64,000 nt of DNA from Nesterenkonia muleiensis. GTDB lineage: Bacteria > Actinomycetota > Actinomycetes > Actinomycetales > Micrococcaceae. The notes beneath the pieces were generated by a model. It was given only the letters and a program-made list of their open reading frames with translations, had not been told where the DNA came from and made no database searches. The DNA lies in NCBI RefSeq assembly GCF_003600155.1, contig NZ_QWLD01000040.1, forward strand, positions 372,001 to 436,000, in the 5' to 3' direction. This document shows, one piece after another, positions 3,506-55,769 of the stretch. How positions within the stretch are numbered: the stretch's first letter is position 1; the number at the start of each line of letters is the position of its first letter. Both the position numbers and the translations under genes were made by a program.

Positions 3506-3533
3506 GTGAGCCGCAGGCGTAGCGATGCGGGGG
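3506..3533 (+). repeat. 28-bp accessory block of the double-hairpin repeat
   Basis: GTGAGCCGCAGGCGTAGCGA and the following TGCGGGGG form a block next to the 67-bp repeat units. The same block, with four or so changes, occurs in inverted orientation at 28795-28822, again joined to a repeat unit. It contains its own weak inverted repeat (CCGCA / TGCGG). Confidence 0.7.
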
Positions 3534-3600
3534 CTTCAGGTGTGATGGCCGCGGCAACGCGGCCGAGAGCGTGACGGGCTCCGCCCGGCCGCGGAACCAG
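3534..3600 (+). repeat. 67-bp double-hairpin repeat, tandem unit 1
   Basis: Begins CTTCAGGTGTGATGGCC and ends CGCGGAACCAG. Two stems are visible: GGCCGCG-gcaa-CGCGGCC and CGGG-ctccg-CCCG. It is followed immediately by a second 67-bp unit (3601-3667). Where it differs from unit 2 in the first stem, both arms change together. Confidence 0.85.
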
Positions 3601-3667
3601 CTTCAGGTGTGATGGCCAGCGTGAGCTGGCCGAGAGCCGAGCGGGTTCTGCCCGCCGGCGGAACCAG
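3601..3667 (+). repeat. 67-bp double-hairpin repeat, tandem unit 2, abutting the lipA stop
   Basis: Same length and frame of motifs as unit 1. Stems are GGCCAGC-gtga-GCTGGCC and GCGGG-ttctg-CCCGC. The unit ends one base from the lipA stop, so on the lipA strand the sequence reads TTC TGA GCTGGTTCCG. It may act as a lipA 3' hairpin. Confidence 0.87.
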
Positions 3668-3668
3668 C

Positions 3669-4709
3669 TCAGAACCCAGCGGCCACCAGCGTTGCGGCTT
3701 CCTGTTTGGTCTGGCCGGAGGGTTCAATATGGGACAGCTCCTCCGGAATCGGCCACCCTTTGCGCTGCATGGCCTTGGCCCACAGGGAACCTGCCCGGTA
3801 GGAGGAGCGCACCAACGGTCCGGACATCACTCCGAGGAATCCGATCTCCTCGGCCTCCTGTGAGATCTCCATGAACTCCTGGGGCTTCACCCAGCGGTCC
3901 ACCGGGAGGTGGCGGGGGGTGGGGCGCAGGTACTGGGTGATGGTGATCAGGTCGCAGCCGGCGTCGTGCAGGTCCTGCAGTGCCTCGGTGATCTCCTCAC
4001 GGGTCTCGCCCATGCCCAGGATCAGATTCGACTTGGTGATCATTCCGTGGTCGCGGCCCTGAGTGAGCACGTCCAGGGAACGCTCGTAGCGGAATGCCGG
4101 GCGGATCCGGCGGAAGATGCGCGGCACGGTCTCGACGTTGTGGGCGAAGACCTCAGGCTTGGACTCGCAGATCCCGGCGATGTTCTCTTCCTTGCCGGAG
4201 AAGTCCGGGATGAGGATCTCCACACCGGTGCCGGGGTTGAGCTCATGGATCTTGCGGATGGTCTCGGCGTAGAGCCAGACGCCCTCATCGGGCAGATCGT
4301 CACGTGCGACACCGGTGACGGTGGCGTAGCGCAGCTGCATCTCACGGACCGATTCGGCGACCTGCAGCGGCTCTGCCGCGTCCACCGGGGCGGGGCGCCC
4401 GGTGTCGATCTCGCAGAAGTCGCAGCGCCGGGTGCAGGCGGAGCCACCGATCAGAAACGTCGCTTCGCGGTCCTCCCAGCATTCGAAGATATTGGGGCAC
4501 CCCGCCTCCTCGCACACGGTGTGCAGGCCTTTGCCCCCGACCCGCTTCTTCATCTCCGTGAACTCAGGCCCGATTTTGACCTTGGTGCGCATCCACTCGG
4601 GTTTCCGTTCGACAGGGACTGCGGCGTTCTTCGCCTCGACCCTGAGCATCCTGCGGCCTTCCGGGGCGATAGTTCCAGTTCCTGCTGCGGTGGGAGCGCA
4701 TCCGCTCAC
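3669..4709 (-). CDS. lipA: Lipoyl synthase (radical SAM)
   Basis: Inserts two sulfurs into protein-bound octanoyl groups to make lipoyl-E2 and GcvH; cytosolic. 346 residues. The auxiliary cluster cysteines are C66, C71 and C77 ([12 protein letters not shown]) and the radical-SAM CxxxCxxC is C92, C96 and C99 (CTRRCDFC). The GMGETREEI block and the C-terminal SSYRAGSLW with its cluster-ligand serine are present. The start is a GTG at 4707-4709 that overlaps the lipB stop (GTGA), so the two are translationally coupled. The client E2 protein (sucB) lies about 1.6 kb upstream. Two copies of a structured repeat follow the stop. Confidence 0.97.
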
Positions 4710-13729: not shown

Positions 13730-15115
<1,386 letters not shown>

Positions 15116-27230: not shown

Positions 27231-28754
27231 ATGACCGTCTACGCACAGCCCGGCACTGAAGGCAGCGTTGTCAGCTTCAAGCCCCGGTACGAGAACTACA
27301 TCGGCGGCGAATGGGTCGCCCCGGTGAAGGGACAGTATTTCGAGAATCCCTCACCGGTGAACGGCAAGACGTTCACCGAGGTGGCGCGCTCCACTGCAGA
27401 GGACATCGAGCTCGCCCTTGATGCCGCTCACAAGGCGGCACCTGCCTGGGGGAAGACCACGGTGGCCGAACGGGCAGTGCTGCTGAACACAATCGCCGAC
27501 CGGATCGAAGAGAACCTCGAGCTGCTGGCCGTGGCTGAGACCTGGGAGAACGGCAAACCGGTGCGGGAGACCCTGGCTGCCGACCTTCCGCTGGCGGTGG
27601 ACCACTTCCGGTACTTCGCCGGCGTGATCCGGGCCCAGGAGGGTGGTATCAGTGAGATCGACCCCACTACCGTGGCCTACCACTACCATGAGCCGCTGGG
27701 CGTGGTCGGCCAGATCATCCCGTGGAACTTCCCAATCCTGATGGCGGTGTGGAAACTCGCCCCGGCCCTGGCCGCGGGAAATGCCGTGGTGCTCAAGCCC
27801 GCTGAGCAGACTCCCAGCTCCATCCTGGTGCTGATGGAACTGCTCAGCGATCTGATTCCCGACGGCGTGGTCAACGTGGTCAACGGTTTCGGTGCTGAGG
27901 CCGGCGCGCCCCTTGCCTCGAACCCGAGGATCAGGAAGGTCGCCTTCACCGGTGAGACCACCACGGGACGGCTGATCATGCAGTACGCCAGCCAGAACCT
28001 GATTCCGGTGACTTTGGAACTGGGCGGGAAGTCGCCGAACATCTTCTTCGAAGACGTCGCCCAGGCCGATGATGCCTTCTACGACAAAGCGTTGGAAGGC
28101 TTCACCATGTTCGCGCTGAACCAGGGCGAAGTCTGCACCTGCCCTTCCCGCGCACTGATCCAGTCCAGCATCATCGACGGCTTCCTTGAGGCGGCGGTGG
28201 AACGCACCAAGGCCGTCACACAGGGCAATCCGCTGGACACCGACACCCAAGTCGGCGCCCAGGCCTCCAACGATCAGCTGGAGAAGATCCTCAGCTACCT
28301 CGACATCGGGCAGAAGGAGGGGGCCGAGGTGCTCACCGGTGGATCCCGCGTGGACCTCGGGGGGGACCTGGCAGAGGGCTACTACGTGGAGCCGACCATC
28401 TTCCGCGGCAACAACGCCATGCGGATCTTCCAGGAGGAGATCTTCGGCCCGGTGGTCTCGGTGACCGAGTTCTCCGATTACGACGACGCCATCTCCATCG
28501 CCAATGACACCCTCTATGGGCTCGGTGCCGGCGTCTGGTCCCGGAACGGGAATGTGGCCTACCAGGCCGGGAGGGACATCCAGGCAGGCCGGGTGTGGAC
28601 CAACTGCTACCACCAGTACCCAGCACACGCCGCATTCGGCGGGTACAAGAACTCCGGCATCGGCCGGGAGAACCACCTGATGATGCTGTCCCACTATCAG
28701 CAGACCAAGAATCTGCTGGTCAGCTACTCGGAGGATAAGCTCGGATTCTTCTGA
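27231..28754 (+). CDS. aldB: NAD-dependent aldehyde (acetaldehyde) dehydrogenase
   Basis: 507 residues. Oxidises acetaldehyde and related aldehydes to acids. The general-base Glu is E263 in [12 protein letters not shown] and the nucleophile is C302 in [10 protein letters not shown]. The NAD-site block is [19 protein letters not shown] and the C-terminal ALDH end is [14 protein letters not shown]. The start ATG has a strong GAAGGAG site. The sub-family is the AldB/ExaC-like acetaldehyde dehydrogenases that travel with a DUF779 gene, which follows here at 96 nt. A CRP-like site lies 31 nt upstream. A copy of the double-hairpin repeat starts right at the stop codon. Confidence 0.95.
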
Positions 28755-28822
28755 GTTAGTCTCGGCGGCGTTGCCGCGGCCATCGGGCCTGAAGTCGCCG
28801 CATCGCTTCGCTTGCGGCTCAC
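28755..28822 (-). repeat. Double-hairpin repeat, shortened copy plus accessory block, after the aldehyde dehydrogenase stop
   Basis: On the minus strand the unit reads CTTCAGGCCCGATGGCC, then GCGGCAACGCCGCCGAGAC (28755-28794); the second stem of the 67-bp unit is missing. It is joined to the 28-base block GTGAGCCGCAAGCGAAGCGA plus TGCGGCGA (28795-28822), which also flanks the copy at 3506. The repeat begins at the TTC-TGA end of the gene. Confidence 0.75.
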
Positions 28823-52238: not shown

Positions 52239-52341
52239 GTCCTCTCGAATTATTCGAGGGACACCCAGGCGGTCGATGTCAGCTCTGCCTTGCACTCCCC
52301 GGTGGTGGTCCACCCTGCGCCAGTCGTGCGGCTCAAGTCTA
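52239..52341 (-). promoter_or_regulatory. ZTP (pfl) riboswitch with ribosome-site-masking hairpin, upstream of folD
   Basis: On the minus strand the aptamer blocks of the ZTP class appear in order: CCGCACGACTGGCG (about 52331-52318), GGTGGACCACCACCGGGGAG (about 52314-52295), and CCGCCTGGG (about 52272-52264), which closes the pseudoknot. Directly after it GTCC-CTCGAAT and ATTCGAG-A-GGAC (52262 to 52239) form a stem that buries AGAGGAC, the folD ribosome site, four bases before the ATG. This is a ready expression platform: ligand binding would free the site. Known targets of this class are purine and folate genes, which folD fits. Confidence 0.88.
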
Positions 52342-54487: not shown

Positions 54488-55374
54488 CACAAGAGACTCA
54501 GACAGATCCACGCACCAAGTACAAGCACGATCAATACCCAGGGGATCAGGTCCAGGATCAGCCTGGTCTGACCGGGGAGACCACTCCTGAGCCTGACCAC
54601 GGGGAGGAGACCTACGTCGGTCACGGAAGGCTGGAGGGCAAGAAGGCTCTGATCACCGGAGGGGACTCCGGCATTGGCAGAGCCGTGGCCATCGCATACG
54701 CCCGTGAAGGCGCGGATATCGCCTTCGTCCATCTCCCGGAGGAGGCCGAGGATGCGGCGACCACTACAGACTATGTTCGCGAGGCTGGACGGAATGTGGC
54801 TGTCTATGCCGGTGATATCCGTGACGAACCCTTCGCCAAGGACGTCGTGGCACGCACCGTCGAGGACCTCGGCGGCATTGACGTACTGATCCTCAACGCC
54901 GCCTACCAGCGCAAACGTGACGGGATCGCCAGCATCCCCACTGAGGAGGTCAGGCGGGTTTTCGACACCAATCTGCTGGCGCATGTGATCATCACCAGGG
55001 AAGCCGTGCCGCATTTGAAACAGGGTGCCTCGATCATCACTACCACCTCCATTCAGGCCACAGCCCCCGCCCCTCCCCTGGTGGACTATGCGATGACCAA
55101 AGCCGCCCAGAAGGCGTTCACCGAGGCTCTGGCTCAAGAGCTCGGGCCGAAGGGCATCAGGGTCAATGCCGTGGCACCAGGGCCGATCTGGACACCGCTG
55201 ATCCCTGCGACGAACTTCCCGGAGGAGAAGGTCGAACAGTTCGGCGCCGACACCGCCCTGGACCGCCCAGGCCAGCCTGCCGAACTGGCAGGCGCCTATG
55301 TGTATCTCGCCTCTGAGGAGGCCTCCTACACCTCCGGTGCCATCCTCCCGGTCACCGGCGGCAAACCGTTCTGA
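54484..55374 (+). CDS. Short-chain dehydrogenase, stress-associated (YhdF/YghA-like)
   Basis: 296 residues. A 45-residue Gln/Asp/Pro-rich N-terminal extension (KYKHDQYPGDQVQDQPG) precedes a classical SDR: ITGGDSGIGRAVAIAYAREG (cofactor loop), LILNAAYQ (NAxx), TTTSIQA (Ser) and the catalytic YAMTK. It ends in LPVTGGKPF. The N-terminal tail and general sequence match the SDRs found in general-stress operons. It overlaps the upstream dehydrogenase by ATGA. A 67-bp double-hairpin repeat begins at its stop codon. Confidence 0.9.
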   Translation: MTQETQTDPRTKYKHDQYPGDQVQDQPGLTGETTPEPDHGEETYVGHGRLEGKKALITGGDSGIGRAVAIAYAREGADIAFVHLPEEAEDAATTTDYVREAGRNVAVYAGDIRDEPFAKDVVARTVEDLGGIDVLILNAAYQRKRDGIASIPTEEVRRVFDTNLLAHVIITREAVPHLKQGASIITTTSIQATAPAPPLVDYAMTKAAQKAFTEALAQELGPKGIRVNAVAPGPIWTPLIPATNFPEEKVEQFGADTALDRPGQPAELAGAYVYLASEEASYTSGAILPVTGGKPF

Positions 55375-55375
55375 G

Positions 55376-55442
55376 CTGGTCCCGGCGGCGGGGAGACCCC
55401 GCTCGCCTCTCGGCCGCGAGAGCACGGCCATCACGCCTGAAG
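55376..55442 (-). repeat. 67-bp double-hairpin repeat after the SDR stop
   Basis: Exactly 67 bp. On the minus strand it reads CTTCAGGCGTGATGGCC and ends CGCCGGGACCAG. Stems: GGCCGxG/CxCGGCC and GCGGGG-tct-CCCCGC. It starts one base after the SDR stop, the same phase as at lipA. A further 18-base piece of a second unit (CTAGTCCCGGCGGCGG on the plus strand, 55445-55460) follows. Confidence 0.85.
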
Positions 55443-55508
55443 CGCTAGTCCCGGCGGCGGAAAATATGCTTGCTACGCAGTCACAACGGCCTCAAAAGGA
55501 GCACAGCA

Positions 55509-55769
55509 ATGGCACGGTCACGTGTGAAAGATGAAGAACTCTACGAGAAGCTCCGTGAGGAGCAGGACTACTCCAAGGAGAAAGCGGCACGGATCGCCAA
55601 TGCTGCGGCCAAGGAAGGGAGGTCGGCTCAGGGGAAGAAGGGCGGAGGATCTCCGCAGTACGAGGACTGGACTGTCGATCAGCTCAAAACCCGTGCCAAG
55701 GAACTGGAGCTCACCGGATACTCAGCCCTCAACAAAAGTGAACTCATCGACCTGTTGCGCAATCACTGA
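55509..55769 (+). CDS. Small basic protein with a Rho N-terminal (SAP-like) domain
   Basis: 86 residues. The first half is charged (MARSRVKDEELYEKLREEQ, YSKEKAARIANAAAKEG), followed by a Gly/Lys linker. The second half, YEDWTVDQLKTRAKELELTG-YSALNKSELIDLLR, is a Rho-N/SAP helix-extended-helix fold that binds nucleic acid. Proteins of this form are common in actinobacterial stress regions; no precise role is known. ATG 55509 is chosen for the AAAAGGAG site; an in-frame ATG at 55470 lacks one. It converges on the ACR3-like gene, and the stop regions overlap by seven bases (55763-55769). Confidence 0.8.
   Translation: MARSRVKDEELYEKLREEQDYSKEKAARIANAAAKEGRSAQGKKGGGSPQYEDWTVDQLKTRAKELELTGYSALNKSELIDLLRNH

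What the first reader, a model, noticed from the sequence alone, without database searches (positions are those of the whole stretch)
3506..3668. 67-bp double-hairpin repeat with paired stem changes, tandem after lipA
Two adjacent units are both exactly 67 bp. Their first stems read GGCCGCG/CGCGGCC and GGCCAGC/GCTGGCC, and their second stems CGGG/CCCG and GCGGG/CCCGC. Sequence differs but pairing is kept, so the structure seems selected. A third 67-bp unit lies at 55376-55442 and a shortened one at 28755-28794. On the strand of the upstream gene, the lipA and SDR copies begin TTC TGA GCTGGT, so the element starts at the last Phe codon and stop. This could be a REP-like mobile repeat that targets gene ends, or a structured 3' UTR element.
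Basis: seen in the sequence. Interest (0 to 1): 0.78.

Follow-up and report, generated by a model that had tools for sequence, protein, structure and literature searches.

The report
Stop-codon-flush palindromic repeat family in Nesterenkonia
This is one of more than a hundred copies of a short DNA element with two hairpins that has spread through one group of Nesterenkonia bacteria, often sitting exactly behind the stop codon of a gene; what moves it is unknown.

Summary
Paired stem changes recur: 17 of 17 pairs in 113 copies here, 16 of 17 in 77 copies from relatives. Hits occur in 12 of 30 genus genomes and in none of the 31 other genera sampled in the family or 108 in the order. Filled and empty orthologous gene ends indicate insertion. 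Where the upstream gene is co-oriented, the 5' end lies at -8..+4 nt of its stop codon in 34 of 38 (here) and 38 of 49 (relatives) filtered sites, about 3 expected each; in 42 of 76 anchored copies exactly 9 nt separate stop codon and first stem. The RAYT prediction fails: no Y1 transposase in 26 good genus genomes. Antisense copies are common, and stem mismatches do not follow transcription. Eight sites in relatives carry 22-61-bp flank duplications abutting the 5' end. Best reading: an orphan REP/BIME-like mobile palindrome inserting at CTGA/stop codons by an unknown route. IS110 transposases are commoner in carriers, an untested lead.

The parts
3602..3668 (-). unit A (67 bp), directly behind the lipA TGA (3671-3669): head GCTGGTTCCG, stem P1, CTCTCGG, stem P2, ATCACACCTGAA
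   Evidence: CM 91.8 bits
3535..3601 (-). unit B (67 bp), head-to-tail with A; different stem sequences, pairing kept
   Evidence: CM 71.7 bits
3506..3534 (-). tail hairpin (GCATCGCTACGCCTGCGGCTCAC type) closing the insert
   Evidence: present in filled G000 and G006, absent from empty G003 and G020
3669..4709 (-). lipA (lipoyl synthase), upstream gene; its C-terminus is unshifted in the filled and empty species compared
   Evidence: Pfam PF16881/PF04055
55375..55441 (+). unit C (67 bp) directly behind the SDR gene TGA (55372-55374)
   Evidence: 89.8 bits; orthologous site empty in G006, G007, G020, G027 and degenerate in G016
55444..55460 (+). truncated second head (GCTAGTCCCGGCGGCGG) behind unit C
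28755..28794 (+). internally deleted unit behind the aldehyde dehydrogenase TGA (28752-28754)
   Evidence: 29.1 bits; site empty in G006, G007, G016, G027
28795..28822 (+). tail hairpin TCGCCGCATCGCTTCGCTTGCGGCTCAC

Best explanation
An orphan REP/BIME-like, non-autonomous mobile palindrome family. SHOWN: about 67-bp units of two covarying hairpins (P1 10 bp, P2 7 bp) with a conserved single-stranded head (CNGW-GCTGGTYCCG) and 3' tag (WTCACRCCTGAAG), in some copies followed by a tail hairpin or a truncated next unit; found at gene ends, in sense orientation mostly flush with the stop codon; present or absent at orthologous sites; head-to-tail arrays; confined to one part of Nesterenkonia in the genomes sampled. 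INFERRED: an enzyme recognises the hairpins and their single-stranded tags (hence conservation of pairing and tags rather than of stem sequence) and joins the 5' end at CTGA-like sites. A TGA stop codon preceded by C is such a site, and so is the unit's own CCTGAAG end, which would explain the 67-bp arrays. Insertions elsewhere are mostly lost because they break genes, except where a 22-61-bp flank duplication leaves the gene whole. When transcribed in sense, P1 starts 4-15 nt behind the stop codon and may secondarily affect translation termination or mRNA ends; I do not think that is its primary role.
For: Family size. Covariation with 0 of 500 shuffles reaching the observed score, in two copy sets. 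Empty and filled sites for lipA, SDR, ALDH and the window gene 13730-15115, and filled, remnant or short-gap states at gnd. Stop anchoring 34 of 38 and 38 of 49 against 2.8 and 2.9 expected for uniform placement; every copy of the main (-2) class has CTGA (17 of 17 and 25 of 25) although C precedes only 64% of TGA codons. C-terminus unshifted in 96 of 109 ortholog comparisons, which are not independent and include filled-filled pairs. Flank duplications. Carriers cluster on a lipA tree (2 label changes against 9.2 shuffled). By eye, terminator-like hairpins persist behind the inserts at the 15115 orthologs of G006 and G016.
Against: No mobilising enzyme was identified: Y1 is absent; reverse transcriptases do not track carriers; IS110 is commoner in carriers but neither universal nor exclusive. 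Stop codons at anchored sites are used at about the genome's own frequencies (53 TGA, 20 TAG, 3 TAA of 76, background), so CTGA specificity alone does not explain the TAG and TAA cases. At one shared site the offset from the stop codon differs by small indels between species yet stays flush (L089, L261, L291), which hints at selection on position. None of the stop-anchored sense sites in relatives shows a flank duplication, so the two classes may not share one mechanism.
Confidence: 0.7

Rival explanations
1. Host-maintained structured 3' UTR element: a hairpin 4-15 nt behind the stop codon tunes translation termination or mRNA stability, and selection keeps it flush with the stop.
For: Stop-to-stem spacing is 4-15 nt in all 76 anchored copies (the anchoring window of -8..+4 allows 3-15) and exactly 9 in 42; pairing is conserved; the register is kept through indels at a shared site. 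E. [quoted passage not shown]
Against: Antisense copies are common; G.U:A.C counts are 16:25 in sense and 7:19 in antisense tandem contexts, no difference (Fisher p 0.43); relatives lacking the element keep the same genes; by eye, terminator-like hairpins persist downstream.
Confidence: 0.17
2. Classical REP mobilised by a RAYT (Y1) transposase.
For: Hairpins with conserved flanking tags, copy number and gene-end placement resemble REPs.
Against: No Y1_Tnp in 26 of 26 good genomes, including the 11 such carriers; no GTAG head; head-to-tail arrays, which are rare among GTAG REPs (PMC3733652).
Confidence: 0.04
3. Non-autonomous element moved in trans by an IS110/IS1111-type (DEDD) transposase.
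For: IS110 hits in 11 of 12 carriers against 8 of 18 genus genomes without element hits (Fisher p 0.018; genomes are related, so not independent).
Against: Carrier G002 has none; this genome, with the most copies, has only a partial hit (positions 1-70 of 155); no element was looked for beside these genes, as their loci were not fetched.
Confidence: 0.08
4. SINE-like retroelement copied by a reverse transcriptase: one fixed end, one variable end, long variable target duplications.
For: Flank duplications of 22-61 bp with a precise 5' junction and ragged 3' side; A.C exceeds G.U in stem P2 of copies in this genome (37:15) and in the first relatives set (10:0).
Against: The A.C excess is absent from the second relatives set (12:14); G006 (101 copies) and six other good carriers have no reverse transcriptase hit, and two genomes without elements have one; those at the four loci examined are group II introns without elements within the 1.5-kb flanks.
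Confidence: 0.04
5. No transposition: local tandem duplication plus ectopic gene conversion and palindrome correction.
For: 67-bp tandem arrays (12 units in G027); neighbouring copies in one site are often alike.
Against: Dispersed copies at unrelated genes with precise stop-codon junctions and orthologous empty sites.
Confidence: 0.05

Closest known systems
GTAG-type REPs / BIMEs with RAYT transposases
   Same: Dispersed high-copy palindromes, paired stem changes, clusters, location downstream of genes; REP ends that provide the stop codon of flanking ORFs are reported (PMC3733652, passages)
   Different: No GTAG tag, two-hairpin 67-bp unit, head-to-tail arrays, no Y1 transposase, tight stop-codon register, genus-restricted actinobacterial family
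CGTC-type REPs (including Rickettsia RPE-4 and RPE-6)
   Same: Palindromic repeats that 'apparently lack a dedicated transposase' (PMC3733652)
   Different: No CGTC tag; those are single stems of 8-9 bp, mostly head-head dimers, reported from five phyla that do not include Actinobacteria
Bacterial MITEs
   Same: Short, no coding capacity seen, non-autonomous by inference; flank duplications at some sites
   Different: No long terminal inverted repeats or fixed-length target duplication; no parent IS found

Membership tests
GTAG REP | unpaired GTAG (or degenerate) tetranucleotide at one end | tested here: not met
   head is CNGW-GCTGGTYCCG, 3' side WTCACRCCTGAAG
GTAG REP | RAYT (Y1) transposase in the genome | tested here: not met
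   0 of 26 good genus genomes
GTAG REP | high-copy interspersed palindrome | tested here: met
CGTC REP | CGTC tag and 8-9-bp stem with A/T pairs in first and second position | tested here: not met
   against PMC3733652
BIME (mosaic palindromic element) | several palindromic modules combined in clusters | tested here: met
   P1/P2 units, tail hairpin, truncated units
BIME (mosaic palindromic element) | REPs in alternating orientation | tested here: not met
   units of the arrays looked at are head-to-tail; orientation was not tabulated for every neighbouring pair
MITE | terminal inverted repeats shared with an IS | tested here: inconclusive
   only a short TGAG...CTCA similarity between head and tail, by eye; no systematic IS search
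MITE | fixed short target-site duplication | tested here: not met
   no duplication of 12 bp or more detected at most sites; 22-61 bp and variable at 8; duplications of a few bases could not be seen
IS110-mobilised element | IS110 transposase present in all carriers | tested here: not met
   11 of 12 carriers, 8 of 18 others
Group II intron or other reverse-transcriptase element | reverse transcriptase tracks carriers | tested here: not met
   hits in 4 of 12 carriers and 2 of 18 others
Known RNA family | Rfam match | tested here: not met
   (only a sub-threshold microRNA match, 22.9 bits against a cut-off of 100)

The most novel reading that the evidence does not exclude
A mobile palindrome moved by a so far undescribed, non-HUH route that joins its 5' end at stop codons (CTGA-like sites), regenerates its own target to build 67-bp arrays, and at other sites leaves unusually long, variable (22-61 bp) target duplications that rebuild the gene end it entered.
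Probability: 0.23. Interest if true: 0.75.

Novelty: new variant of a known kind. Interest (0 to 1): 0.52.

Why it matters
REP-type repeats are widespread in bacteria, yet how families without a dedicated transposase spread is open; PMC3733652 says so for CGTC repeats. Here is a genus-restricted family with copy number from 0 to about 140 across close species, empty sites, a near-exact stop-codon register and some insertions that carry flank duplications. That makes target choice and the moving enzyme directly testable. It also warns that contigs of such genomes often break at the element.

Tried and rejected
RAYT/Y1 transposase: rejected. Y2 (IS91-type) transposase: no hit in 30 genus genomes, but no control genome rang, so not informative. 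IS110: 19 of 30 genus genomes, namely 11 of 12 carriers and 8 of 18 others; not rejected, kept as a weak rival. Reverse transcriptase: 4 of 12 carriers and 2 of 18 others (Fisher p 0.18); no element at the four RT loci examined. Strand-specific RNA signature from G.U versus A.C mismatches: an A.C excess in stem P2 of A2 and A3 was not repeated in A4 and does not depend on context; dropped. General target-site duplication in this genome: not seen in 107 clusters, with one possible exception (L125) whose left copy lies 69 nt before a degenerate unit. Plasmids and phages by distant blastn, viral contigs by exact pattern: no match. Rfam: no family. Transposase beside elements: gene calls at 12 loci showed none evident to the eye; those proteins were not searched against families. 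The pattern was badly placed and found nothing. Literature: searches listed no paper on a Nesterenkonia repeat family; PMC3733652 was read in two of eight parts plus passages, PMC12306157 in passages only, all others as listings.

Full report
OBSERVATION. On the minus strand behind lipA lie two head-to-tail 67-bp units (3668-3602 and 3601-3535) and a tail hairpin (3534-3506). A third unit stands at 55375-55441 behind an SDR gene, with a truncated second head at 55444-55460, and an internally deleted unit at 28755-28794 behind an aldehyde dehydrogenase gene, again with a tail hairpin. The three upstream genes all end TTC TGA immediately before the element. The core motif occurs 100 times in the genome at up to 2 mismatches, against 2 for the reversed control.

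STRUCTURE. An alignment of 20 units folds into P1 (10 bp with one bulge) and P2 (7 bp). RNAalifold gave the same pairs as my hand structure. A covariance model found 140 hits at E<=0.1 in this genome; only 150 candidates were scored, so the true number may differ. In 113 copies of this genome 92.3% of pair cells are standard and 17 of 17 pairs show two-sided changes. In 77 further copies from relatives (75 distinct rows) the figures are 94.1% and 16 of 17. No shuffle of 500 reached the observed covariation score in either set, and slid controls stay at about 51% paired or less. These alignments were fitted to the model, which leans them towards the structure; the 20-sequence MAFFT alignment was not. 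Unpaired tags are conserved too: TCTC between the stems, WTCACRCCTGAAG after P2, GTYCC before P1. Single-sequence folding energy beats dinucleotide shuffles clearly for only one of the three window units.

DISTRIBUTION. Twelve of 30 genus genomes have hits at E<=0.01, from 1 (G010, weak) to 136. None of the other 31 genera in a family sample (245 genomes) and none of the other 108 genera in an order sample (396 genomes) does; those two searches used stricter filters. Carriers cluster on a lipA tree of 27 genomes: 2 label changes against 9.2 in shuffles. A named carrier is Nesterenkonia massiliensis NP1; G016 has a contig of the same length, 515,382 bases, so it is probably that genome. No match in plasmid, phage or viral collections.

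INSERTION. At the lipA end the element is present in G000, G006 and G016; in G003 and G020 only GC separates the TGA from the next gene's TAGACT box, and the other intergenic regions printed show no full unit to the eye. The SDR site is empty in G006, G007, G020 and G027, with a degenerate copy in G016; the aldehyde dehydrogenase site is empty in four relatives. Behind the gene at window 13730-15115, G016 has a sense copy and G006 and G003 an antisense copy (G003's contig ends inside it), while G000, G007 and G020 have none; by eye, a terminator-like hairpin follows in G006 and G016 as in the empty species.

STOP-CODON REGISTER. Among the top 80 hits, where the nearest upstream gene is co-oriented and the hit does not overlap a gene, 31 of 37 start at -7..+3 nt of its stop codon; 15 of the 80 hits overlap a called gene by 20 nt or more. 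Counting only first units of arrays among the top 113 hits, 36 of 41 are at -8..+4; in 92 distinct relative sites the unfiltered count is 40 of 66. After also dropping sites without a called downstream gene and distances typical of second units or duplications (55-85 in G000; <=-10 and 55-110 in relatives), 34 of 38 and 38 of 49 are anchored, against 2.8 and 2.9 expected for uniform placement in the gap. Of 76 anchored copies the spacing from stop codon to P1, by CM alignment, is 4-15 nt and exactly 9 in 42. The main class is always CTGA|GCTGG-like (17 of 17 and 25 of 25), while C precedes TGA in only 64% of genes. Yet overall stop usage at anchored sites (53 TGA, 20 TAG, 3 TAA) is close to that of the genome (67/24/9%), and C-termini are unshifted in 96 of 109 ortholog comparisons, which are not independent and include filled-filled pairs. 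At other first units the 5' flank is often CNGT (CAGT, CGGT, CTGT). Divergent gene pairs are rarer than background: 6 of 63 first units here and 4 of 86 relative sites with two called neighbours, against 15 of 80 background pairs. Gene calls come from my own codon-usage caller, not a standard tool.

ORIENTATION. Between co-oriented genes, sense and antisense counts are 21 and 20 first units in G000 and 41 and 20 sites in relatives. G.U versus A.C mismatches do not differ between sense (16:25) and antisense (7:19) copies. An A.C excess in P2 seen in two sets failed to repeat in the third. I therefore find no RNA-level signature; conservation of pairing may reflect recognition of single-stranded DNA hairpins, which is inference.

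FLANK DUPLICATIONS. In relatives, 8 distinct sites of 92 carry a direct duplication of host flank scoring above the null maximum of 20: 58, 61, 39, 35, 39, 34, 22 and 24 bp. In all eight the left copy ends 0-3 nt before the element and the right copy starts 0-30 nt behind the last unit. L249 also scored above 20 but is a repeat module and was not counted; L261 (16.0) is a possible ninth. At gnd in G003 and G002 the duplicated piece is the last about 60 bp of gnd including its stop codon, so the gene stays whole; by eye, G006 and G000 keep element remnants there. The far end of the duplication falls at or next to a stop codon in L230, L077, L213 and L031. None of the stop-anchored sense sites has such a duplication, and G000 shows no clear one in 107 clusters.

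MOBILISING ENZYME. No Y1 transposase in the 26 good genus genomes. Reverse transcriptase hits occur in 4 of 12 carriers and 2 of 18 others; G006 with 101 copies has none, and those at the four loci examined are group II introns without elements nearby. IS110 hits occur in 11 of 12 carriers and 8 of 18 others (Fisher p 0.018 ignoring kinship), but carrier G002 has none and this genome only a partial one; I could not follow this up. The Y2 search was uninformative. The moving enzyme is unknown or lost.

COMPARISON. REPs with GTAG or CGTC tags share copy number, paired stem changes and placement behind genes, and GTAG ends are reported to provide stop codons (PMC3733652). This family lacks both tags and the Y1 transposase and forms head-to-tail arrays. 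I file it as REP/BIME-like in how it behaves, not as a member of either tagged superfamily. My searches listed no paper describing it; only open-licence papers are held.

VERDICT. Real, genus-restricted in the samples searched, REP-like and mobile by inference; RAYT reading rejected; 3' UTR function possible but unproven.

Noticed in passing
G000, e.g. L309-L311; C9:257712, C29:26630, C8:2650: A second repeat family whose body holds ACCCTCAATCGCCTCGGAAGA, 23 matches at up to 3 mismatches against 0 for the reversed control; two copies (L131, L154) show a head like that of the main family (CTGA/CTGT-GYTGGTGTCGCGCC).
   Followed up: partly
G027:C5:66827-67637 (L069, L078): A run of twelve head-to-tail units, mostly with a 67-bp period and identical scores: a possible VNTR marker.
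   Followed up: no
G000 contigs C3, C8, C13, C15, C16, C18, C25, C38, C39, C42, C47, C50, C53, C57: Seventeen contig ends lie within about 70 nt of an element hit or its core motif: the assembly tends to break at this repeat.
   Followed up: no
L169, L161, L179 and others: Copies inside the 3' end of a called ORF that reads through the unit and stops at the TGA/TAA of CCTGAAG/CCTAAAG, adding about 22 element-encoded residues; other hits lie deeper within called genes (L104, L101, L180).
   Followed up: no
L120 (C18:77766), L109 (C13:224888): Units in which a longer hairpin module (CCCCGACGTGGCCCAC...GTCCCCGACGTCG type) sits between P1 and P2.
   Followed up: no
G002, G003, G000, G006 at the 3' end of gnd (L302, L301, L297, L300): The same gene end carries elements or remnants in four species although its convergent neighbour differs (cysE or an RNase H-like gene, names by eye): a possible insertion hot spot.
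   Followed up: partly
window 52256-52337 (-): ZMP/ZTP riboswitch, 53.7 bits.
   Followed up: no
window 55509-55769 (+): Small protein with DUF7218 and a Rho_N domain behind the SDR element.
   Followed up: no
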